From positions 1-64,000 of the IMG/VR virus record IMGVR_UViG_3300030104_001945: DNA of 64,000 nucleotides, one strand, 5' to 3'. Both the position numbers and the translations under genes were made by a program. Source of the stretch: a virus. Below the pieces are notes generated by a model. It did not search any database. It worked only from the letters and a program-made list of their open reading frames with translations, and was not told where the DNA came from. Positions 11,412-54,284 of the stretch are shown one piece after another (position 1 is the first letter of the stretch; every line of letters begins with the position of its first letter).

Positions 11412-11784
11412 AAAAGGAGGTAAAGCTCCAACACAAAAATATGCTAATGGCAGATGGGCAAAAGCTATATCTGACAGAAGTGGTTTAGAATTTCCTTACA
11501 ATGAAATGGTTAAGGAATGGACAGGGGCGTTAGTTCATACGTCAGAGTGGGAAGAAAAACAACCTCAACTTGATCCAATTGTATATACTGATGCGACAGC
11601 TTTAAAAAATCCTCGACCACCAGTAAATATGTTTACAGGGAATATTCCTGAACCTACAGGAGTTCCTAATCAAATAACGAATGTTTTTCCAGGCACATTT
11701 GGTGCTACAGGAATTTCATTCCCAATGTCTACAGGAGAACAAATAAATGCAAACATCGGAAACGTCACAGTTGTCATTAGCTGA
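11392..11784 (+). CDS. virion protein of the head-tail region, unknown
   Basis: 130 residues, overlapping the preceding gene by 20 bases and the next by 38. The N-terminus is basic and includes KYANGRWAKAISDRSGLEFPY; then a TSEWEEKQPQLDP segment and a Gly/Thr/Pro-rich C-terminal half. From memory, related proteins sit between gp4-like and gp10-like genes in phages of this type. Confidence 0.65.
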   Translation: MASISTKKGGKAPTQKYANGRWAKAISDRSGLEFPYNEMVKEWTGALVHTSEWEEKQPQLDPIVYTDATALKNPRPPVNMFTGNIPEPTGVPNQITNVFPGTFGATGISFPMSTGEQINANIGNVTVVIS

Positions 11785-12583
11785 CGAAGTTTATGATTTT
11801 AAAAAAGCAATAGTAATGATAGGAACCCCATGTTATGGCGGTCTTTTACATGAAGCTTATATGCACTCTTTTTTAAGAACTCAAAAAGAAGCTGAAAAAA
11901 AGGGATATAGACTTCATTTAAACTCAATGGGAAATGAAAGCTTAATAACTAGAGCTAGAAATACCATAGTTTCTCAATTTTTAAATCAAGAAAATCTAAC
12001 TCATTTATTATTTATCGATGCTGATATAGCTTGGCAAGCCGAAACTGTTACTCGTATGTTATCAGTAGATGAAGAAGTAGTAGCCGCTATATATCCCAGA
12101 AAAGGTTTAGAGTGGCAGCATGTAAAAAAGTATGTTAATTCTGCTCCAAATGATTTAGAAAATTTAGAACAAAAACTATTAGGTTATAATTTAAATTTTA
12201 AAGATCCACATAATATACCAATGTATCAAGGTGGATTTGTAGAAGTATTAGATGCAGCTACTGGTTTTATGATGATAAAAAGAGAAGCGATATTAAAAAT
12301 GATAGAAGCATACCCTGATTTAAAATATACATCAGATCAGATGTTAAATGGTAAATTATATGATAGTGATAATTGTTACGCTTTTTTTGATACTATGATT
12401 GATCCAGTAAGTAATAGATATTTAAGTGAAGATTATGCTTTTTGTCGTTTATGGCAAAAAATAGGAGGAAAAATATACGCAGATGTAGCGAGTTCATTAA
12501 CACATTATGGAACATATTCTTTTAAAGGAAATGTCTCGCATAAATTTGCAGAACAAGATAAGATAGAAGATAATGGCGACTAA
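11747..12583 (+). CDS. GT-A fold glycosyltransferase-like protein
   Basis: 278 residues. Begins its fold with AIVMIGTPCYGG, has LITRARNTIVSQFL, and the metal/nucleotide-sugar DxD motif FIDADIAW at D91-D93, followed by VVAAIYPRKG and a C-terminal SEDYAFCRLWQKIGGKIYADV, all typical of GT-A enzymes. It should transfer a sugar from a nucleotide-sugar. It lies inside the neck/tail gene run, overlapping both neighbours, so a virion or host-surface glycan is a likelier target than DNA. The ATG lies within the preceding gene; no strong Shine-Dalgarno sequence. Confidence 0.82.
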   Translation: MQTSETSQLSLADEVYDFKKAIVMIGTPCYGGLLHEAYMHSFLRTQKEAEKKGYRLHLNSMGNESLITRARNTIVSQFLNQENLTHLLFIDADIAWQAETVTRMLSVDEEVVAAIYPRKGLEWQHVKKYVNSAPNDLENLEQKLLGYNLNFKDPHNIPMYQGGFVEVLDAATGFMMIKREAILKMIEAYPDLKYTSDQMLNGKLYDSDNCYAFFDTMIDPVSNRYLSEDYAFCRLWQKIGGKIYADVASSLTHYGTYSFKGNVSHKFAEQDKIEDNGD

Positions 12584-42024: not shown

Positions 42025-42809
42025 AATATTTATTTTTTGACGTAGAAACAACAGGATTATGGAGAAGGGATTTGGCACCAACTGATCCTAAACAACCTAA
42101 AATAGTTCAAATAGCTGCTCAGTTAGCAAGTGAAGATGATAAAGTTACTGCACAACTAGCTTGTATAATTCAACCAGATAAATGGACTATTCCAAAAGAA
42201 GCATCAGATATTCATCACATAACTGATAATATAGCTTTGCAACACGGCGTTCCTCTGATAAATGTATTAGCTATGTTTAATTCTTTAGCAGCACAAGCTG
42301 ACGTATTAGTGGCTCACAATACATCATTTGATTTACAAATGGTATTAAGAGAATTTAATGCGATAGGAAAAAGTTTTAGAATTCCTAAAGAGCAACACTG
42401 TACGATGATGACTGCTAAAGATATTTTAAAATTAGAAAGTGATTTTGATGATTATAAGTTTCCTAAATTAGAAGAAACATATAAACATTTTCTAGGATCA
42501 GGAGGTTATCATAATTGGCACGATGCTTTAACTGATATAATAATATGCCGAATAATTTACTTCCACATGAAAGCGAAAGGAATAAAAATGGAAAAACCAC
42601 GTGCAATGCCTAAAGCATTAATTAAAAATCTTGACGAAAAAATATACAAAGAGTTTTTAAATCTTATAGAATCTATTAATGAAGATAATTTAAATGATTG
42701 GGAGAAAGGTTTTTTAAAAGATCAAAAAGAAAGACACGAAAAATATAAAGAAAAAATACTTATGAGTGATAAACAAATGAATATTTTAAGAAAGATGAAA
42801 GACAAATGA
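42021..42809 (+). CDS. DEDDh 3'-5' exonuclease (DnaQ-like)
   Basis: 262 residues from ATG 42021, with GGAG eight bases upstream. Exo I FFDVETTG (Asp, Glu), Exo II VAHNTSFDLQMV (Asp) and Exo III YHNWHDALTD (His, Asp) complete the DEDDh set. Removes 3' nucleotides from DNA or RNA, as in proofreading or RNase T-like trimming. The C-terminal ~70 residues are charged helices not typical of the fold. Confidence 0.9.
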   Translation: MKYLFFDVETTGLWRRDLAPTDPKQPKIVQIAAQLASEDDKVTAQLACIIQPDKWTIPKEASDIHHITDNIALQHGVPLINVLAMFNSLAAQADVLVAHNTSFDLQMVLREFNAIGKSFRIPKEQHCTMMTAKDILKLESDFDDYKFPKLEETYKHFLGSGGYHNWHDALTDIIICRIIYFHMKAKGIKMEKPRAMPKALIKNLDEKIYKEFLNLIESINEDNLNDWEKGFLKDQKERHEKYKEKILMSDKQMNILRKMKDK

Positions 42810-43756
42810 ACATTTTAGTAACAGGTTGTGCTGGTTTTGTAGGATCACATCTTACAGAGCATTTAGTTAATAGAGGGCATACTGTTTATGGTATAGATAA
42901 TTTATTAACTGGGCAAGAAAAAAATATAGGTAATATACATAGATTTATTGAGGGTGATATATCTAATTCTTCTGATATAAATAAAATAGATATGGGAGGT
43001 CCTATTGATCTCATTTATAATTTAGCTTGTCCTGCAAGTCCTGATCATTATATAAAACATTCTATAAAAACTTTAGACACTTGTTATACCGGTACTAAAA
43101 ATATTTTAGAGTTAGCTAAAACACATAATTCAATAGTTATTCATACTTCTACATCAGAAGTATATGGTAATCCTGATCATACACCTCAAGAAGAAGATTA
43201 TTATGGAAGTGTAAATTCTTTTGGACCACGAGCCTGTTATGATGAGGGAAAGAGAGTAGCAGAAGCATTAATTTATGAGTATATTAGATTATATAAATTA
43301 GACATCAAAGTAGCAAGATTATTTAATACTTATGGGCCTCGTATGTCTGTTAACGATGGACGTGTTGTATCTAATTTTATATGTGCTGCATTACAAGATA
43401 AAGAATTATTACTTTATGGAAATGGTATGCAATCTCGTTCTTTTTGTTATATCTCCGATACTATACACGCATTATTAGATTTAGCAGAAACTACTAAATT
43501 AAATAAACCTGTTAACATTGGTAATCCTGATGAGAAAAAAATATACAATATAGCAGAATTAATTATAAGAATGACTAGTTCTAAATCAGGAATAATGACA
43601 GTAGCACATAAAAAAGATGATCCATTACAACGATGTCCTAATATAGAAAGAATTAATATGTTAATAGGCTGGCACCCTAAAGTAACATTATCAGAGGGAC
43701 TAGAGAAAACCATAGAGTATTTTAGAGAATGTTTAACAAATCAAACACAAACGTAA
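42806..43756 (+). CDS. UDP-glucuronate decarboxylase/UDP-xylose synthase homologue
   Basis: 316 residues, an extended SDR. NAD-binding GCAGFVG at 7-13; catalytic TSTSEVYG (114-121) and Y145-x-x-x-K149 within CYDEGKR. NLACPASPDHY, IGxR-like FGPRACYDEGKRVAE, RLFNTYGPRM and DGRVVSNF agree closely with UXS enzymes, which oxidise and decarboxylate UDP-glucuronate to UDP-xylose. Related 4-epimerases lack several of these features. In this operon it could provide a pentose donor for the glycosyltransferase at 47338. Confidence 0.88.
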   Translation: MNILVTGCAGFVGSHLTEHLVNRGHTVYGIDNLLTGQEKNIGNIHRFIEGDISNSSDINKIDMGGPIDLIYNLACPASPDHYIKHSIKTLDTCYTGTKNILELAKTHNSIVIHTSTSEVYGNPDHTPQEEDYYGSVNSFGPRACYDEGKRVAEALIYEYIRLYKLDIKVARLFNTYGPRMSVNDGRVVSNFICAALQDKELLLYGNGMQSRSFCYISDTIHALLDLAETTKLNKPVNIGNPDEKKIYNIAELIIRMTSSKSGIMTVAHKKDDPLQRCPNIERINMLIGWHPKVTLSEGLEKTIEYFRECLTNQTQT

Positions 43757-45243
43757 TACTAGGTCCACCTGGAACTGGGAAAACTACTTCGTTATTAAAT
43801 AAGCTTGAAGCTGAAATAGAGGCAGGAGTTAAACCTCGAACTATTGGTTTCGTTAGTTTTACTCGTAGAGCAATTAAAGAATCAAGAGAAAGAACTATTA
43901 CTCGATTTGATATAAATGAAGAAACAGATTTAGATTATTTTAGGACACTTCATAGCATTTGTTTTCGTTCTTTAGGATTAAATGGAGAACAAATATTTAA
44001 GGGAAGTCATATTACTGAGTTTAAAAAACTTTTAAAAATAGATATGTCTGGTGGAATAGAAGAAGATGAAATAGTCGCATCAGGAATTAAAATAGGTGAT
44101 AAGATGCTTTTTTGCGATCAGTTATCTAGGGCAATGATGAAGCCACTAAGAGATACTTGGAGAAGTTTAGATTGCGAATACTCTTGGAAAGAACAAGAAT
44201 TATTTTCTAATACATTTAGAAAGTTTAAAGAAAAAAGAGGTTTATCGGATTTCACTGATATGCTTATAACTTTCTTAAAAGATGGTGTAGCACCTCCATT
44301 AAAAGTTTTATTTGTTGACGAAGCACAAGATTTAACTATACTGCAATGGAAAGTAGTAAGTAAATTAGTTGAGAACTGTGATAGATTATATATTGCAGGA
44401 GATGATGATCAAACTATTTATAAATGGGCAGGAGCTGATATTGATACATTTTTAAATCTTCAAGGCAATATTGAAGTGTTACCTTATAGTTATAGATTAC
44501 CTTCTAAAGTTTATGATTTAGCAATCGAGATTAGCTCACGTATTAAAAACAGATTCGCAAAAGAGTGGAAAAGTAGAAAAGAAGAAGGCACTGTTAATTA
44601 TGTATCTGCAGTAGAATATATAGACATGAAAGAAGGATCATGGCTCATCCTCTCTCGGTATAACTATCAACTTTATGCTATACAAAAGTTTCTAAAAACT
44701 CAAGGATTTGTGTTTGAAAATAAGTATGGAGGGTTTAAAGCTAATAAACATGTTCAAGGAATTAGAGCATGGAAGAAATTACACGCAGGGGAAAAAATAT
44801 GTTATGACGAAATTAAAAAACTATATTCTTGCTTACGTACCGGAAGTGGTATAGAAAGAGGATTTAAGAATTTAAAAACGATTGATGAAAAAGAAGAATA
44901 TGAATTAGAAACTTTAGTCATGCATCATGGTTTAAAAGCTAGTGGTACTTGGCAAAAAGCATTAGAAATGATTCCAGAAGAAGATAAATATTATTATGAA
45001 GCACTTGAAAAGACAGGGGATATTGATGAAGATAATCCTAGAATTAGATTGAGCACTATACATGGTAGTAAAGGTGCTGAAGCTGATAATGTAGTTTTAA
45101 TGACAGATGTTTCTTATAAAACTTGGAAGAACTTAGTTAAAGATGACGATGATGAGCATCGTGTTTTTTATGTTGGAATTACAAGAGTAAAAAATAATTT
45201 ATTTATTGTAAATCCTCAAACTGAATATAGCTACAGGATATAA
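43729..45243 (+). CDS. superfamily 1A helicase (UvrD/Rep-like)
   Basis: 504 residues. Motif I LGPPGTGKTTSLL, Ia FVSFTRRAIKESR, II FVDEAQDL, III AGDDDQTIYKWAGAD, IV YSYRLP, V STIHGSKGAEADNVVLM and VI YVGITRVKNN are all present. 3'-5' DNA unwinding is expected. Shorter than UvrD, closer in size to phage Dda-type or small Rep-like helicases. As no DnaB-type helicase was found, it may be a main replicative or recombination helicase. Overlaps the UXS gene by 28 bases. Confidence 0.92.
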   Translation: MFNKSNTNVILGPPGTGKTTSLLNKLEAEIEAGVKPRTIGFVSFTRRAIKESRERTITRFDINEETDLDYFRTLHSICFRSLGLNGEQIFKGSHITEFKKLLKIDMSGGIEEDEIVASGIKIGDKMLFCDQLSRAMMKPLRDTWRSLDCEYSWKEQELFSNTFRKFKEKRGLSDFTDMLITFLKDGVAPPLKVLFVDEAQDLTILQWKVVSKLVENCDRLYIAGDDDQTIYKWAGADIDTFLNLQGNIEVLPYSYRLPSKVYDLAIEISSRIKNRFAKEWKSRKEEGTVNYVSAVEYIDMKEGSWLILSRYNYQLYAIQKFLKTQGFVFENKYGGFKANKHVQGIRAWKKLHAGEKICYDEIKKLYSCLRTGSGIERGFKNLKTIDEKEEYELETLVMHHGLKASGTWQKALEMIPEEDKYYYEALEKTGDIDEDNPRIRLSTIHGSKGAEADNVVLMTDVSYKTWKNLVKDDDDEHRVFYVGITRVKNNLFIVNPQTEYSYRI

Positions 45244-45244
45244 T

Positions 45245-45913
45245 ATGGATATAAAATTAAAATATTTAAATAATTTTGAAAAGAAAATAGATAATGATAT
45301 TTATAGTGAACCTAAATCTAAATTACATTATGGTGTAATAGAACCTCAAACTCAAAAATTTTTAGATACATTTGAAATTAAAGAAGATAAATCAGTTATA
45401 GATATAGGTTGTGGAGATGGATATTTTTTATCACTATTACAAAAAGCAGGGTTTAAAAATTTAGTTGGAGTAACTAAACATGATGAAGATATAAAAAATT
45501 GCAGTAACTATGGATTAAAAGATATTAGAAAAACTGATATGACTTTTACAGGGATAAAAGAAAATTTTGATGCTTTATGGTGTAGACATGTATTAGAACA
45601 TAGTCCATATCCTTATTTAACTTTACATGAATTTAATCGTTTAGTTAAAATGGGAGGTAATGCTTATGTAGAAGTTCCTGAAGCTGAGGGATATATTAAA
45701 CATGAAAATAATGCAAATCATTACTCTATGTTAACGAAAAGAAATTGGGTATCTTTAATTTTACGATGTGGTTTTGATATAAATAAAATACAAGATATTG
45801 ATTTAAGTATAAAAAATCCAGAATTTCAAGATGGGAATCCTTACCCAGAGCAATGGTGGGCTTTTTATTTAACTAAAACAGTCGAATTAAATTTTATGAA
45901 AGGAGAGTTATGA
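45245..45913 (+). CDS. class I SAM-dependent methyltransferase
   Basis: 222 residues. SAM-binding motif I VIDIGCGDGYFL, then a LWCRHVLEHSPYPYLTLHEFNRLVKMGGNAYVEVP core typical of Methyltransf_11/23-type enzymes. No DNA methylase catalytic motif (DPPY or PC) is seen, so a small molecule, sugar or protein substrate is likelier than a DNA base. In a DNA-modification operon it might methylate the attached group; inference. Confidence 0.82.
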   Translation: MDIKLKYLNNFEKKIDNDIYSEPKSKLHYGVIEPQTQKFLDTFEIKEDKSVIDIGCGDGYFLSLLQKAGFKNLVGVTKHDEDIKNCSNYGLKDIRKTDMTFTGIKENFDALWCRHVLEHSPYPYLTLHEFNRLVKMGGNAYVEVPEAEGYIKHENNANHYSMLTKRNWVSLILRCGFDINKIQDIDLSIKNPEFQDGNPYPEQWWAFYLTKTVELNFMKGEL

Positions 45914-46968
45914 AAGCAATAGGAAGTTATATATTTGCTGGTGGATTCACTATCGGCGTTAAAAAACATTTTGATATTGAAGCACATTTAGAAGGTGATG
46001 GATATGGAGCTGATACATTTAGTTTAAATTATCCAGAAATACCAGTTTTTGTTGGTCCAGAAGATTGGCCTACAGAAAAATATAAAGATAAAATAGATTT
46101 TATATATGGTAATCCTCCATGTGCTCCTTGGAGTACGTTAGGTTCTGGAAGTAAAGGTGCAGATGCATGGAAAACTGATCCTCGTATTAGTTGTTGGAAC
46201 GATGTATTTTCTTTACTTTATAAAATAAAACCAAAAGCTTTAGCTATTGAGTCAGTTCCTCGTGTTTATTCAGAAACAGGAGGTAGACCAATGATAATGG
46301 ATTTTACAAGAAAAGCTAATGAAGAAGGATATGCAGTTACTCATTTACTAATAGATGGTCAATATGCTGGACTTCCTCATTCAAGAAAAAGATTTTTTTT
46401 CATAGCGCATAAAGGAAATTTTAATCCCCCTGCTCCTAACTGGAATCCTGCGCCAACTGTAGGAGAAGTGTTAGATGAATTAAAAGCAGATGGAATTGAA
46501 GCAGGACACACAGCAACGTTAAGTGAAAATGAAATGAAATTAACTAAACTGGCTAAACCTGGAGAATCTTTAAGAAATATATGGGAAAGTTTAAACCCAC
46601 CAGAAACTTGGAAAAGGTCTACTAAAGGAAGAAAAGGAGTTATAGGTAGACCTCAATTTATGAAATGGAGATTAACTAGAGAACAGATAATGGGAGTTAT
46701 TGCTGGAAGTTTTTCTATACATCCAGAAGAAGATAGGCTTTTAGGAATACAAGAATTATGTGCTTTCTCTGGATATCCAACAGATTATAAATTTGCTGGA
46801 GCAAAATCAGGGTGGCCTAGTTTATTAGCTAGAGGAGTAATGCCTCCAGTAGGTGAATGGGTAGCTAGAAATGTAAAAACAATGATTGAGTCAAATCAAC
46901 CTTTCGAAGTTAATCATAAAATTATTGATTATCGTAAACCAACAACAGGAGATTTATTTAATGCTTAG
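45910..46968 (+). CDS. C5-cytosine DNA methyltransferase homologue
   Basis: 352 residues. Motif I-like YIFAGGFTIG, motif IV GNPPCAPWS with nucleophile Cys71, motif VI as ESV (E114) instead of the usual ENV, motif VIII GLPHSRKRFFFIA (R159, R161) and C-terminal GYPTDYKFAG ... ARGVMPPVGEW equivalent to motifs IX-X. It should methylate, or otherwise modify, C5 of cytosine. The changed VI and X motifs, next to a putative hydroxymethylase, make specialisation possible. Overlaps neighbours by 4-8 bases. Confidence 0.85.
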   Translation: MKAIGSYIFAGGFTIGVKKHFDIEAHLEGDGYGADTFSLNYPEIPVFVGPEDWPTEKYKDKIDFIYGNPPCAPWSTLGSGSKGADAWKTDPRISCWNDVFSLLYKIKPKALAIESVPRVYSETGGRPMIMDFTRKANEEGYAVTHLLIDGQYAGLPHSRKRFFFIAHKGNFNPPAPNWNPAPTVGEVLDELKADGIEAGHTATLSENEMKLTKLAKPGESLRNIWESLNPPETWKRSTKGRKGVIGRPQFMKWRLTREQIMGVIAGSFSIHPEEDRLLGIQELCAFSGYPTDYKFAGAKSGWPSLLARGVMPPVGEWVARNVKTMIESNQPFEVNHKIIDYRKPTTGDLFNA

Positions 46969-47341
46969 AGATATTGAAGAGTTCCATAAAAAATTTGGAT
47001 TTAAAAAAAGACAAGGTATCAAAAATAATAAAGATTTGGTAGACTTTCGGATTAAATTCTTAGAAGAAGAATTAAGAGAATTTAAAGAAGCAATTAAAGA
47101 AGAAGATGATGCGAAAGCATTAGATGCTTTAGTTGATTTAACTTATGTAGCTATAGGAACGGCTTATCTATTTGATTATCCTTTCTGGGTTGCATGGTCA
47201 GAAGTACAGAAAGCAAATATGGCAAAAGTAAGAAAAGAAAGTGAACGTTCTAAATTTGATGTAACTAAACCTAAGGGTTGGAAAGCACCTAATATAGAAC
47301 AAGTTCTTCACACATTTAAAAAATGGAGCGCATGGTCATGA
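46961..47341 (+). CDS. MazG-like nucleotide pyrophosphohydrolase
   Basis: 126 residues from ATG 46961, with AGGAG nine bases before. FLEEELREFKEAIKEEDDAKALDALVDLTYVAIGTAYL carries the E-E-x-x-E and D-x-x-x-D metal-binding pattern of the all-alpha NTP pyrophosphatase superfamily. It hydrolyses NTPs or dNTPs to NMP and PPi. Phages that replace cytosine need a dCTPase (T4 gp56 belongs to this superfamily), so dCTP removal is an attractive but unproven role. Confidence 0.85.
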   Translation: MLRDIEEFHKKFGFKKRQGIKNNKDLVDFRIKFLEEELREFKEAIKEEDDAKALDALVDLTYVAIGTAYLFDYPFWVAWSEVQKANMAKVRKESERSKFDVTKPKGWKAPNIEQVLHTFKKWSAWS

Positions 47342-48384
47342 AAGTATTAGTAACAGGATTTACTGCGAAAGGTATTGGCAGTGGTAAAAATGTATTAGAG
47401 ATTGCGACAGCAGCTAATTGTTTACCAAGAGCATTAAGAGAATGTGGAATAGAAGTTGATCATAAACCAGTTATACCTGGAGAAGATATATCAGAATATG
47501 ATAAAGTAGTTGTATTTGCTTTTGCTCCTAATTCTTTACCATCATCTTATTTATATGGAGGTCTTTATACTTTATTGAAAAGACCTGACGCATACATAGC
47601 ATTAGATGATTGGCAAACTAAAGATATAAAACAAGGGTGTGGTACTTTCGCACGTGATGGCCATTGGCGATTATGGAAAAGAGTAAGTAAAGCAGGTAAC
47701 TCTGTTGGTAAAAAATTCTTTAATGAAGCACAGCCCTATAAAAAAGAAATGGAAGATTTAATTACGCAATTAGCTTTCGAACAGTGGCCATATAGAGTTC
47801 TAGCACCAGTTTATAAGGGTGGAGACGTATCTCAACTAGGAATAGATTCCGCAGAAATTATACCATGGGATCCAACTCCTGTTACCGATAGCTATAAAGC
47901 AGGAAGTAAATATAATCAATCTTTATTCTCAAGAATAGATTCACATGATGGACCTAAAAATAAAGAATGGATAATGGCTTCGTTAATTCAAAAACAGAGT
48001 TGGTTTAAACGTCAACATTTCGAGTGGAAAGTAACTTGCTACGGTAATCCTAATTTAGGTCAAGAACGATTAACTGAACCAGAATTATATAATGAATACC
48101 TAAGAGTAAGAGGAATATTAATACCTCCTCATTATCATACGATAAAAGGTAGTGGTTGGTGGAGAGTTCGTTATGGCATGATAGCAGACGCAGGTTGTAT
48201 TGCTTATGGAGAACAAGAAGAAACTAAACTTTTTGGCGATGCATATAGAATTCATCATAGTGATATAGAAAAAATGAACGACAATGAATTAGATGATTTA
48301 GCTAAAGCGCAGAAAGAAGATTTTAATTCTACAGTATGGAATAAAAATAGATTAAATACGTTTATCGGAGATTACTTTTTATGA
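47338..48384 (+). CDS. GT-B-type glycosyltransferase, candidate DNA sugar transferase
   Basis: 348 residues. ATG 47338, with GGAG seven bases upstream, overlaps the MazG stop as ATGA. The N-terminal Rossmann-like start MKVLVTGFTAKGIGSGKN, YDKVVVFAFAPNSLPSSY and the C-terminal GSGWWRVRYGMIADAGCIAYGEQEETKLFG region, with its G-x-x-R...A-x-A-G pattern, fit a GT-B enzyme. It is flanked by MazG, a dNMP kinase and the hydroxymethylase homologue, so transfer of a sugar to hydroxymethylcytosine in DNA is a reasonable inference. The acceptor is not visible in the sequence. Confidence 0.72.
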   Translation: MKVLVTGFTAKGIGSGKNVLEIATAANCLPRALRECGIEVDHKPVIPGEDISEYDKVVVFAFAPNSLPSSYLYGGLYTLLKRPDAYIALDDWQTKDIKQGCGTFARDGHWRLWKRVSKAGNSVGKKFFNEAQPYKKEMEDLITQLAFEQWPYRVLAPVYKGGDVSQLGIDSAEIIPWDPTPVTDSYKAGSKYNQSLFSRIDSHDGPKNKEWIMASLIQKQSWFKRQHFEWKVTCYGNPNLGQERLTEPELYNEYLRVRGILIPPHYHTIKGSGWWRVRYGMIADAGCIAYGEQEETKLFGDAYRIHHSDIEKMNDNELDDLAKAQKEDFNSTVWNKNRLNTFIGDYFL

Positions 48385-48986
48385 AAGACAGGAAGAATAT
48401 AATTAGAGGTATAATTATAGTAGAAGGTGCAGACTGTACTGGTAAAACTACTCTAACAGATTTACTTCGTAAAAAGTTTAAAGCACGTTATATGCATTTA
48501 CGAATCCATAAAAGAATGGAGATATGGCATAAAGCAACTGTTCGTAGAGCAATAAGATTAGCTAAAGATGAGTTAGTTGTAATAGATAGGCATTGGCCAT
48601 CAGAAGAAGTTTATTCTTACGAAAGAGCAGATGGCCCTGAATATAATCCTATTAAGTTGTATAAAAAATTAAAGAAAGCAAATACGTTATATGTATGGTG
48701 TGCGCCAGAAGATAGTGCTAGAGTTATAAAAGTACATAGAAAAAAGAAAGAAGAACGACATGAAGAATATAGTGATATTACTCGAATTGTCGATAGATAC
48801 AAACGTTCATGGTATGGTTTAAACTATGAGCACGATAATTTTCTTAAATCTCTAGGAGAGTTAAGATGGCGAAAAAACTTCATACGATATGATGTTTTTA
48901 AAGAAGGTCATAAGATTGATAGTAAAACTTATGATATAATTAATCGATTACGATATTTGAGAGGAGAAGCAGTATGGACGGTTTAG
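48381..48986 (+). CDS. P-loop deoxynucleoside monophosphate kinase-like protein
   Basis: 201 residues. P-loop GADCTGKT at 16-23 and VVIDRHWPSEEVYSYERADG (DR-x-x motif) match thymidylate kinase-like enzymes; a lid region rich in Lys/Arg (HRKKKEERHEEY) follows. It would phosphorylate a dNMP to dNDP. Beside the hydroxymethylase homologue, a hydroxymethyl-dCMP kinase role (as T4 gp1 performs) is inferred. Confidence 0.82.
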   Translation: MKDRKNIIRGIIIVEGADCTGKTTLTDLLRKKFKARYMHLRIHKRMEIWHKATVRRAIRLAKDELVVIDRHWPSEEVYSYERADGPEYNPIKLYKKLKKANTLYVWCAPEDSARVIKVHRKKKEERHEEYSDITRIVDRYKRSWYGLNYEHDNFLKSLGELRWRKNFIRYDVFKEGHKIDSKTYDIINRLRYLRGEAVWTV

Positions 48987-49828
48987 CAGCTTTAGCAGCA
49001 GATAATGTTTGGAATGATGCTATTTTAGATATTCAAGGTGGAGTAGAATCCGCACCTCGTGGTTTAGTAACACGAGAAAAAATAAATCATACAACGATGT
49101 GCGATATGAGATATCCTATCGTTACTAACACGAGAAGATTATTGGGTTATAAGTTTATGATTCAAGAAGCTATTTGGATATTAAGAGGGGATAATAGATT
49201 AAGTACAATAGAACCTTACTCTAAGATGATTGGTAAATTTAGTGATGATAAATATTTCTTTCGAGGTGCATATGGTCCTAAAATTATAGATCAACTTCAA
49301 TATATATGTAAGTCATTAAAAGAAGATAGAAACACGAGACAAGCAGTTATAAATATTTGGAGAGAAAGTCCTCATGATACTAACGATGTACCTTGTACTG
49401 TATCTTTTCAATTTTTAATTCGTCAAGATAAATTACATATCATAGCTAATATGCGTTCAAACGATTTGTGGTTAGGTTGGCCTTATGATAATTTTAATTT
49501 TTCTATGCTTGGCGCATACGTTGCTTTATTACTATATGATATTTATAAAGTAGAAGTAGGATTAGGAATAACAACTATTAATGCTGGTTCACGTCATTTA
49601 TATAAACCAAATTTTGAGTCAGCAGATATGTGTACTCGTTCTAATTATGAAGATTATGTGAACTATAAACCATTGAATTTAAAGGATTATAGTAGTGCAG
49701 AAGATTTCTTAGAGCATTTAGAATTTGTATCTTTAGATAAAGGTCAAATTAACGAAATGAAAGTAAAAGCATTAGACCGTGAATATGGAAAAGGATTTGC
49801 CCATGAACTTTTCAACAAGGCCAAGTAA
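48974..49828 (+). CDS. dCMP hydroxymethylase (thymidylate synthase fold)
   Basis: 284 residues. Catalytic Cys141 in VPCTVSFQF, phosphate-binding RS at 161-162 in MRSNDLWLGWPYD and HLY at 208-210. The base-specificity residue, Asn177 in E. coli thymidylate synthase, is Asp172 here; the Cys-to-Asp distance of 31 equals that in both E. coli TS (146/177) and T4 gp42 (148/179). Asn-to-Asp at this site is the known mark of dCMP hydroxymethylases, which use methylene-tetrahydrofolate and water to make hydroxymethyl-dCMP. A divergent thymidylate synthase is the alternative. Confidence 0.85.
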   Translation: MDGLAALAADNVWNDAILDIQGGVESAPRGLVTREKINHTTMCDMRYPIVTNTRRLLGYKFMIQEAIWILRGDNRLSTIEPYSKMIGKFSDDKYFFRGAYGPKIIDQLQYICKSLKEDRNTRQAVINIWRESPHDTNDVPCTVSFQFLIRQDKLHIIANMRSNDLWLGWPYDNFNFSMLGAYVALLLYDIYKVEVGLGITTINAGSRHLYKPNFESADMCTRSNYEDYVNYKPLNLKDYSSAEDFLEHLEFVSLDKGQINEMKVKALDREYGKGFAHELFNKAK

Positions 49829-50264
49829 GCACGAAACTTTTTTAGAAATTGCTAAGACTGTCTCGGAACAAGCAACATGCATCCGGCGTAATGTTGGATG
49901 TGTGTTAGTTAATTCTAAAAATCATATTCTTGCAACTGGATATAATGGAGTTCCTGCAGGAGCAGTGCATTGTTTAGATTTACCTTGTAGTGGAGCAGAG
50001 TTTCCATCAGGAGAAGGATTAAATTCTTGCGAAGCGATTCACGCAGAACAAAACGCATTACTTCAATGTAAAGATATTTATGATATTGAAAAATGTTATT
50101 GTACAGTAAGTCCGTGTATGACGTGTGTAAAATTATTATTAAATACTTCTTGTAGTATTTTAATTTTTCCTACTTTATATACAGACGTAGAGCCATTAGA
50201 ACTTTGGAAAAAATCAGAAAGAGAGTATATTATTTATGAACGACCTATTCAAACCCGCCAGTAA
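49803..50264 (+). CDS. dCMP deaminase
   Basis: 153 residues; ATG 49803 preferred over an in-frame ATG at 49779 because AAAGG lies at a good distance. Zinc site CEAIHAEQNAL (His, Glu) and SPCMTC (two Cys) is complete, and CVLVNSKNHILATGYNGVPAGAVHC is the family N-terminus. Converts dCMP to dUMP for dTTP synthesis, and lowers unmodified dCMP pools. Overlaps the hydroxymethylase by 26 bases. Confidence 0.93.
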   Translation: MNFSTRPSKHETFLEIAKTVSEQATCIRRNVGCVLVNSKNHILATGYNGVPAGAVHCLDLPCSGAEFPSGEGLNSCEAIHAEQNALLQCKDIYDIEKCYCTVSPCMTCVKLLLNTSCSILIFPTLYTDVEPLELWKKSEREYIIYERPIQTRQ

Positions 50265-53341: not shown

Positions 53342-53605
53342 ATGGTTCGTATCACGTGGTTAGATGCACGTGATACGGAAACCGGGTGGCTTGATATAAA
53401 AGATGTCATTGAAGCACCTTTAGCAATATGCCAAGAAGTTGGTTGGATGGTCGTTAATAATAATGAGAAAGTTGTTATTATGCGTTCTTACAGTAAAGAT
53501 AAAGATGAAGTATCTGGCGGTGGGTCAATTGCTATCCCTAAAGGTTGGATAACTAAAATAGAATACTTGGAGGTATCATATGGAGAAAGAAGCGATAATA
53601 GGTAA
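53342..53605 (+). CDS. small conserved protein, unknown
   Basis: 87 residues. RITWLDARDTETGWLDIKDVIEAPLAICQEVGWMVVNNNEKVVIMRSYS then GGGSIAIPKGWITKIEYL; compact beta-rich. Similar short proteins are seen in other phages from memory. Overlaps the oxygenase gene by 26 bases. Confidence 0.7.
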   Translation: MVRITWLDARDTETGWLDIKDVIEAPLAICQEVGWMVVNNNEKVVIMRSYSKDKDEVSGGGSIAIPKGWITKIEYLEVSYGERSDNR

Positions 53606-54284
53606 TGTATTCGGCAAAACTATTTATAAATCGTCAATCAAGGATCATCAATATTTAAATGGTAAAGTTGGACCTCTTATTAAGAAATTTGTAAAACAGA
53701 AACCAGGAAGTGTAGCTGCAACGACAGATGTAGAAGGTAATCTTAAAGCAACGATATTAGAAAATGCAGTTGATAATTTACATTTACAAGATGACTATAA
53801 AGAATTGTTTGATGCATTATCTTTTGATATAAAAGGATTTATGGCAGCGAAATCTTATGACGATAGTAAGTTTGATATAAACATTACTAAAGCATGGGCA
53901 ACTTATACGAGTAAGGGACAAAATATCCCTTCACATAAACATACTGCGTCACATTTTAGTTGTGTATATTATGTGCATAACGAAGGTATGGGCGATATTA
54001 AATTTGAACAGGAACTTTATTCTCATGATGGATTTTTTATTCCACCAACAGAGGCTTATATAAAAGAATGGAATCAATTTAATTTTGCAAGTTATAAATT
54101 TGAAGTAAAGTCAGGGGATTTTATTATATTCCCCAGTAGTTTACTTCATCAAACTGAAACTAATAATAAAGATGATGCTAGAATAAGTATTTCAGCAGAT
54201 ATTCTTTTAACAATGAAAGAGGGGGTTAGTACAGAGCACTGTATTCCAAGTCCAAAAACTTGGAAAACAATATATACTTCATAA
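53580..54284 (+). CDS. 2-oxoglutarate/Fe(II) oxygenase-like protein
   Basis: 234 residues with AGGTATC..ATGGAG context (GGAGG at 53570). IPSHKHTASHFSCVYYVHNEGMGDIKF and GDFIIFPSSLLHQTETN with RISISADI give the iron ligands and the 2-oxoglutarate-binding Arg of the TIGR02466/2OG-FeII_Oxy_5 type. Hydroxylates an unknown substrate. Not of the TET type; a role in DNA modification is not indicated but not excluded. Confidence 0.8.
   Translation: MEKEAIIGNVFGKTIYKSSIKDHQYLNGKVGPLIKKFVKQKPGSVAATTDVEGNLKATILENAVDNLHLQDDYKELFDALSFDIKGFMAAKSYDDSKFDINITKAWATYTSKGQNIPSHKHTASHFSCVYYVHNEGMGDIKFEQELYSHDGFFIPPTEAYIKEWNQFNFASYKFEVKSGDFIIFPSSLLHQTETNNKDDARISISADILLTMKEGVSTEHCIPSPKTWKTIYTS

What the first reader, a model, noticed from the sequence alone, without database searches (positions are those of the whole stretch)
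42806..50264. Candidate cytosine hypermodification pathway built into the replication operon
Seen: a UDP-xylose-synthase homologue, a SAM methyltransferase, a C5-cytosine methyltransferase homologue, a MazG-like pyrophosphohydrolase, a GT-B-type glycosyltransferase, a dNMP-kinase-like protein, a dCMP-hydroxymethylase-like enzyme and a dCMP deaminase, in one operon just before DNA polymerase. Known: T-even phages make hydroxymethyl-dCMP, phosphorylate it, destroy dCTP, incorporate hmdCTP and glycosylate the DNA; RB69-type phages carry arabinosylated hydroxymethylcytosine. Inference: this phage has an analogous route in a different gene arrangement and on a podovirus, with a UDP-xylose-derived sugar. 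The full set, with its own sugar-donor enzyme, is the strongest candidate for an undescribed system here.
Basis: partly seen in the sequence, partly recalled or inferred. Interest (0 to 1): 0.88.

Follow-up and report, generated by a model that had tools for sequence, protein, structure and literature searches.

The report
Phage operon for sugar-coated hydroxymethylcytosine DNA
This uncultured phage carries, next to its DNA polymerase, a conserved set of genes that most likely swaps the cytosine in its DNA for hydroxymethylcytosine and then attaches a sugar, probably xylose, a pairing not found described in the papers searched.

Summary
In detail: every gene is at the stated place, in one tight operon ending in DNA polymerase. 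The TS-fold enzyme has all the published residues that mark a dCMP 5-hydroxymethylase (Asp three residues before the catalytic Cys; Asp at the dCMP-specificity site), as do 47 orthologues. It is neither thymidylate synthase nor the RB69-type 5-hydroxy-dCMP synthase. The unannotated glycosyltransferase models confidently (pLDDT 89); its best solved match is T4 DNA beta-glucosyltransferase. Eight of nine named phages sampled that carry this transferase family also encode a dCMP hydroxymethylase or 5-hydroxy-dCMP synthase; the ninth has a Tet/JBP oxygenase beside it. UDP-xylose synthase (UXS) sits in the operon in the window's clade; the sister clade lacks it and carries UDP-glucose-dehydrogenase-family and NAD-synthase genes instead. 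In 72 other UXS-bearing viral contigs neither transferase nor hydroxymethylase is nearby. Best reading: cytosine replaced by hmC, then glycosylated by a T4-BGT-fold enzyme using a UDP-glucuronate-derived sugar, most likely xylose. The principle is known (T4, RB69, Thanatos); donor enzyme, transferase family and podovirus-like setting look new. Sugar identity and hmC in virions are inferred, untested. The C5-methyltransferase homologue is unexplained.

The parts
42806..43756 (+). UDP-glucuronate decarboxylase / UDP-xylose synthase (UXS), makes the presumed sugar donor UDP-xylose
   Evidence: PDB phmmer: UXS1 E 7.5e-90, next family 3.5e-33; UXS motifs STSEVYG, GPRACYDEGKRV, DGRVxSNFI invariant in 12 rows
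43729..45243 (+). UvrD/Rep-type helicase in the same operon (replication, probably not modification)
   Evidence: PF00580 2e-29; phrog_1967 DNA helicase 1.6e-79
45245..45913 (+). SAM-dependent methyltransferase, accessory (possibly acts on the sugar; not detected in some relatives)
   Evidence: PF13489 6e-16; not detected in L045, L049 and the sister clade
45910..46968 (+). C5-cytosine-methyltransferase homologue, conserved in the operon, role unknown
   Evidence: PF00145 5e-28; NPPC, ESV and RFF motifs conserved in 47 rows, motif I reads IFAGGF
46958..47341 (+). MazG-like NTP pyrophosphohydrolase, presumed dCTPase
   Evidence: PF01503 4e-10; phrog_671 2e-27
47323..48384 (+). GT-B glycosyltransferase, presumed hmC-DNA glycosyltransferase
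   Evidence: no Pfam match; model pLDDT 89.2, pTM 0.88; best PDB match T4 DNA beta-glucosyltransferase E 4.4e-6, TM 0.54-0.59
48381..48986 (+). P-loop deoxynucleoside monophosphate kinase-like protein (presumed hmdCMP kinase)
   Evidence: phrog_761 thymidylate kinase 6.7e-13; Pfam Thymidylate_kin only below cut-off
48974..49828 (+). dCMP 5-hydroxymethylase (TS superfamily)
   Evidence: PF00303 1e-18; best PDB match MilA CMP hydroxymethylase 1.2e-18; E60/D145/C148/S169/D179 (T4 numbering) all present, in 47 orthologues too
49803..50264 (+). dCMP deaminase (first possible start GTG at 49779)
   Evidence: PF00383 1e-18; phrog_174 4e-36; no dCDA hit between HM and PolA in L006/L007
50236..52107 (+). 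family A DNA polymerase, end of the block
   Evidence: phrog_17 9e-119

Best explanation
The operon makes and uses a sugar-modified cytosine. MazG lowers dCTP to dCMP; part of the dCMP goes to dUMP through the deaminase; the TS-fold enzyme converts dCMP to 5-hydroxymethyl-dCMP with methylene-THF; the P-loop kinase (with host NDK) makes hmdCTP; PolA incorporates it in place of dC. The phage UXS converts host UDP-glucuronate to UDP-xylose, and the BGT-fold GT transfers the pentose to the 5-hydroxymethyl group in DNA after replication, shielding it from host restriction, Cas and Type IV enzymes. Shown here: gene identities, active-site signatures, fold, conservation, co-occurrence. Inferred: flux, incorporation, acceptor, sugar identity and protective role. 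My odds: hmdCMP synthesis 0.9, hmC-DNA as the GT acceptor 0.8, a UDP-GlcA-derived pentose 0.65, xylose itself 0.55.
For: Active site: D at -3 of Cys (hydroxymethylation), D at T4-179 (dCMP), S/R (deoxyribose), per PMC6400193 and PMC5175136; met by the window and 47 orthologues; it is the only TS-family gene in the record. GT: T4 BGT is the top solved match, and a forced alignment puts invariant D96 on BGT D100 (weak). Named phages with this GT: 8/9 carry a dCMP-HMase or 5-hydroxy-dCMP-synthase signature; the ninth has Tet_JBP directly before the GT. Donor: UXS lies in the operon in the 11 contigs of the clade where its position is covered, and 0 of 72 other viral UXS loci have this GT or a TS-family enzyme nearby. 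The sister clade has a UDP-glucose-DH-family gene, mostly with NAD synthase, instead; the two were never found together. No UGM, RB69 arabinose-cluster homologue or Tet in the window. Purifying selection on all genes.
Against: No chemistry on any member; virus uncultured and host unknown. UGDH is absent from the phage, so UDP-GlcA must come from the host (not checked). Sequence-profile match of GT to T4 BGT is not significant (probability under 5%); the claim rests on the predicted fold. GT relatives pair with other sugar enzymes (UGM, arabinose cluster, UGDH family), so the sugar cannot be read from the GT itself. The conserved C5-MTase homologue has no role in the scheme.
Confidence: 0.7

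Rival explanations
1. Same hmC pathway, but the sugar is not xylose: arabinose after epimerisation by a host enzyme, or glucuronic acid, or host UDP-glucose, with UXS serving another purpose.
For: The sister clade with 48-52% identical GT has a UDP-glucose-dehydrogenase-family gene and no UXS, so glucuronate could be its sugar; more distant GT relatives sit beside UGM or in the RB69-type arabinose cluster.
Against: UXS is kept under purifying selection in the operons of the window's clade in which its position is covered; no UGM or arabinose cluster found in the window.
Confidence: 0.25
2. UXS and GT modify a host surface polysaccharide; the phage DNA carries unglycosylated hmC.
For: UXS occurs in hundreds of other viral contigs, and 72 of those examined have no HM or GT nearby; a surface or other role is likely there.
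Against: GT is nested between MazG and kinase with overlaps, has the T4 BGT fold, and its relatives co-occur with cytosine C5-hydroxylation enzymes in all nine named phages tested.
Confidence: 0.08
3. The TS-fold enzyme makes 5-hydroxy-dCMP (RB69/Mosigvirus type), giving a pentose linked directly to C5-O, as in 5-ara-dC.
For: Pentose-type donor, and the GT family also occurs in Morganella phage Rgz1 with such an enzyme.
Against: RB69/Rgz1 enzymes have Glu at -3 and S-Q-N; the window and 47 orthologues have Asp at -3 and S-N-D, as in T4 dCMP hydroxymethylase.
Confidence: 0.07
4. The TS-fold enzyme is a dCMP 5-methylase or a thymidylate/dUMP enzyme and the DNA carries 5mC or T only.
For: TS-family folds are shared; a dCMP deaminase feeding dUMP is present; a C5-MTase homologue is present.
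Against: Asp, not Asn, at T4-179 argues against dUMP as substrate; Asp at -3 marks hydroxymethylases; a GT would have no acceptor.
Confidence: 0.05

Closest known systems
T-even phage (T4) glucosyl-hmC system
   Same: dCMP hydroxymethylase signature, dCTP removal, dNMP kinase, dCMP deaminase, GT with the fold of T4 beta-glucosyltransferase
   Different: gene order is one block before a family A polymerase; MazG instead of gp56; GT family without detectable sequence similarity; encodes its own sugar-donor enzyme (UXS); podovirus-like phage
Mosigvirus RB69/NP 5-arabinosyl-dC system
   Same: pentose on cytosine; donor genes beside DNA polymerase and a TS-family enzyme; the window's GT family also occurs in the equivalent cluster of Morganella phage Rgz1
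   Different: RB69 makes 5-hydroxy-dCMP (Glu at -3, S-Q-N) and uses an isomerase/NTP-transferase cluster, none found in the window; RB69 ORF003c is not detectably related in sequence to the window GT
Shewanella phage Thanatos deoxypentose-dC
   Same: cytosine, pentose-type sugar, TS-family enzyme, dCTPase and dCMP deaminase; UDP-xylose chemistry proposed
   Different: UDP-xylose made there by a pyrophosphorylase (TH1_063), here by UDP-GlcA decarboxylation; Thanatos sugar reported bound without a hydroxymethyl group
MazG-kinase-HMase-dCDA block of 'Podoviridae sp. ct3Et533', AXL3 and PW916
   Same: same core dC-replacement gene set with the same dCMP-HMase residues
   Different: no member of this GT family and no UXS found in the regions compared

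Membership tests
dCMP 5-hydroxymethylase (T4 gp42 class) | TS fold with catalytic Cys and catalytic Glu60 | tested here: met
   PF00303 1e-18; E and C aligned
dCMP 5-hydroxymethylase (T4 gp42 class) | Asp three residues before Cys (T4 D145), marks hydroxymethylation | tested here: met
   N-D-V-P-C in the window; 47 orthologues
dCMP 5-hydroxymethylase (T4 gp42 class) | Asp at T4 D179 (dCMP over dUMP) and Ser/Arg for deoxyribose | tested here: met
dCMP 5-hydroxymethylase (T4 gp42 class) | makes hmdCMP in vitro | not testable with these tools
   needs purified enzyme
UDP-xylose synthase (UXS) | sequence nearer UXS1 than other SDR sugar enzymes, with UXS motifs | tested here: met
   E 7.5e-90 against 3.5e-33 for the next family; motifs
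UDP-xylose synthase (UXS) | decarboxylates UDP-GlcA | not testable with these tools
   needs purified enzyme
T4 beta-glucosyltransferase | GT-B fold closest to BGT | tested here: met
   top three PDB matches are BGT, E 4.4e-6 to 1.7e-5
T4 beta-glucosyltransferase | detectable sequence homology | tested here: not met
   no Pfam match; hhalign probability 4.7%
Mosigvirus 5-ara-dC system | 5-hydroxy-dCMP synthase signature (Glu at -3, S-Q-N) | tested here: not met
Mosigvirus 5-ara-dC system | arabinose-5-P isomerase / NTP-transferase cluster and ORF003c | tested here: not met
   no match in window ORFs at E 0.01, with a positive control that matched
TET-based hmC phages | Tet_JBP oxygenase | tested here: not met
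   window 2OG protein is PF13759, not Tet_JBP; C48C1 Tet query finds nothing in the window

The most novel reading that the evidence does not exclude
A phage-specific family of BGT-fold DNA glycosyltransferases in which the sugar is set by an exchangeable donor gene: xylosyl-hmC where UXS is present (this window), glucuronosyl- or other uronate-derived hmC in the sister clade with a UDP-glucose-dehydrogenase-family gene plus NAD synthase, and furanosyl sugars where UGM is present. A uronic acid on DNA would put a negative charge in the major groove, which to my knowledge has no precedent.
Probability: 0.35. Interest if true: 0.85.

Novelty: new variant of a known kind. Interest (0 to 1): 0.72.

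Why it matters
It would extend hypermodified hmC DNA beyond T4-like phages to an uncultured, probably short-tailed lineage seen in dozens of metagenome contigs, give a new sugar on DNA with a phage-encoded route to its donor, and assign a function to a GT family annotated mostly as hypothetical in Aeromonas, Gordonia, Erwinia, Providencia and Morganella phages. The exchanged donor genes (UXS, UDP-glucose-dehydrogenase family, UGM, arabinose cluster) around one transferase family make it directly testable how phages vary the sugar, presumably to escape Type IV restriction enzymes and glycosylases that recognise particular modified cytosines.

Tried and rejected
Nucleotide search of the phage collection with the block: no match. 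Homology of GT to RB69 ORF003c and ORF050c by profile comparison: none. First GT model from 9 sequences was poor (pLDDT 69) with mixed GT-B matches; replaced by a 45-sequence model. GT search of bacterial genomes: 66 pattern matches, none a relative, which suggests a phage-restricted family within the limits of that scan. UXS alone as evidence for DNA modification was rejected: it is common in viruses without HM or GT. The 2OG-Fe(II) oxygenase at 53580-54284 was rejected as a Tet-like pathway member: wrong family and not found in several relatives. Thymidylate synthase, dUMP-hydroxymethylase and 5-hydroxy-dCMP synthase readings of the HM were rejected on active-site residues.

Full report
What is there. 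The window is 64,000 bases of a 64,233-base virus record. The block 42806-50264 holds, all on the + strand and mostly overlapping: UXS, a UvrD helicase, a SAM methyltransferase, a C5-MTase homologue, MazG, a glycosyltransferase, a P-loop kinase, a TS-fold enzyme and dCMP deaminase, followed without a gap by family A DNA polymerase. There is no close relative in the phage collection at DNA level.

The base. The TS-fold enzyme is most like MilA, a CMP hydroxymethylase, among solved structures. Published work gives residues that separate the family: Asp three residues before the catalytic Cys activates the water used for hydroxymethylation, and Asp at T4 position 179 gives dCMP rather than dUMP specificity (PMC6400193); Ser and Arg rather than Ala and Lys give deoxyribose preference (PMC5175136). 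Aligned with T4 gp42, E. coli ThyA, an enzyme of a SPO1-related phage (Goe26) and RB69 ORF048, the window enzyme has all of the dCMP-hydroxymethylase residues, and so do 47 orthologues; ThyA has Leu and Asn at the two positions, the Goe26 enzyme Asp and Asn, RB69 Glu and Asp with S-Q-N instead of S-N-D. PMC13390438 reports that the RB69-type enzyme makes 5-hydroxy-dCMP; the window enzyme does not carry that signature. It is the only TS-family gene in the record.

The transferase. The GT has no Pfam match. A model from 45 phage sequences has pLDDT 89.2 and pTM 0.88. The three best matches among 350,542 solved chains are T4 DNA beta-glucosyltransferase (E 4.4e-6 to 1.7e-5, TM 0.54-0.59). The invariant Asp96 falls on BGT Asp100 in a forced alignment, but that alignment is not significant on its own. 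Nine named phages with this GT from different lineages were examined: eight carry a dCMP hydroxymethylase or 5-hydroxy-dCMP-synthase signature in the genome, and the ninth, C48C1, has a Tet_JBP oxygenase immediately before the GT and a UDP-galactopyranose mutase immediately after it. Thus the GT family is tied to C5-hydroxylated cytosine by three different routes.

The sugar. UXS is a strong family call with UXS motifs invariant in the clade. In viral contigs of the window's clade UXS is in the operon wherever the position is covered (11 contigs). In a sister clade with 48-52% identical GT, UXS is absent and a UDP-glucose/GDP-mannose dehydrogenase family gene (nearest solved relatives are GDP-mannose and UDP-glucose dehydrogenases), usually with NAD synthase, follows the polymerase (25 contigs). 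The two gene sets were never found together, also when whole contigs were searched (an empty answer in fragments is weak). They fit adjacent steps of one route, UDP-Glc to UDP-GlcA to UDP-Xyl. As a control, 72 other UXS-bearing viral contigs have neither this GT nor a TS-family enzyme near UXS. More distant GT relatives have UGM or the RB69-type arabinose cluster. No UGM, arabinose cluster or Tet gene was found in the window. The simplest reading is xylosyl-hmC, with other sugars in relatives.

Selection and dispensable parts. dN/dS against three relatives is 0.03-0.30 for every gene. dCMP deaminase is missing between HM and PolA in L006/L007, and the SAM methyltransferase is not detected in L045, L049 and the sister clade, so these are accessory. 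The C5-MTase homologue is present in nearly all contigs where its position is covered, with conserved NPPC and ESV motifs and a shortened SAM-binding motif I (the canonical motif is from my own knowledge). I have no tested explanation; clearing residual unmodified dC by methylation is a guess.

Relation to known systems. The logic is that of T4 and it probably works like it. It is not filed as an RB69-type system because the defining synthase signature and donor cluster were tested and not met. Thanatos (PMC12838424) is the closest report of xylose-type chemistry, but with a pyrophosphorylase and no hydroxymethyl group. I found no paper in the searched library describing UXS-linked hmC glycosylation (the library lacks most subscription journals).

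Limits. All of this is sequence and predicted structure. The virus is uncultured, host unknown, records may be fragments, and the relatives were found by pattern-based scans. Many contigs are related, so counts are not independent events.

Noticed in passing
L051:12719-14739 and equivalents in L050-L081, L086, L087: Sister-clade operons carry a UDP-glucose/GDP-mannose dehydrogenase family gene, usually with an NAD synthase, right after DNA polymerase, in place of UXS; an extra SDR epimerase follows in L051, L072 and L078.
   Followed up: yes
L015:6592-10039 (Phage C48C1): Tet_JBP oxygenase, a GT of the window's family and UDP-galactopyranose mutase lie side by side, a possible furanosyl-hmC cassette acting after replication.
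   Followed up: partly
window 45910-46968: C5-MTase homologue conserved with the operon across clades, with motif I shortened to FAGGF; its role in a phage presumed to lack plain cytosine is unexplained.
   Followed up: partly
L016:3498-4214, L009:13090-13794: RB69-type 5-hydroxy-dCMP synthases share Glu at -3 of the catalytic Cys and S-Q-N instead of S-N-D, a candidate sequence marker to tell them from dCMP hydroxymethylases.
   Followed up: partly
window 53580-54284: 2OG-Fe(II) oxygenase (PF13759) downstream of the polymerase, present in some relatives (L002, L004, L034) but not detected in others (L003, L005, L029).
   Followed up: partly
window 11747-12583: Protein in the structural region with weak glycosyltransferase similarity (phrog_34859 1e-4, Anp1 below cut-off).
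   Followed up: no
window 48974-49828: The window's hydroxymethylase is 18 residues longer than that of L003, mostly near the C-terminus, outside the active-site signature.
   Followed up: no
L114:5010-9212, L116:3998-8007: Gordonia phages GodonK and Mareelih carry this GT beside further glycosyltransferases and hypothetical genes, suggesting longer sugar chains on DNA.
   Followed up: no
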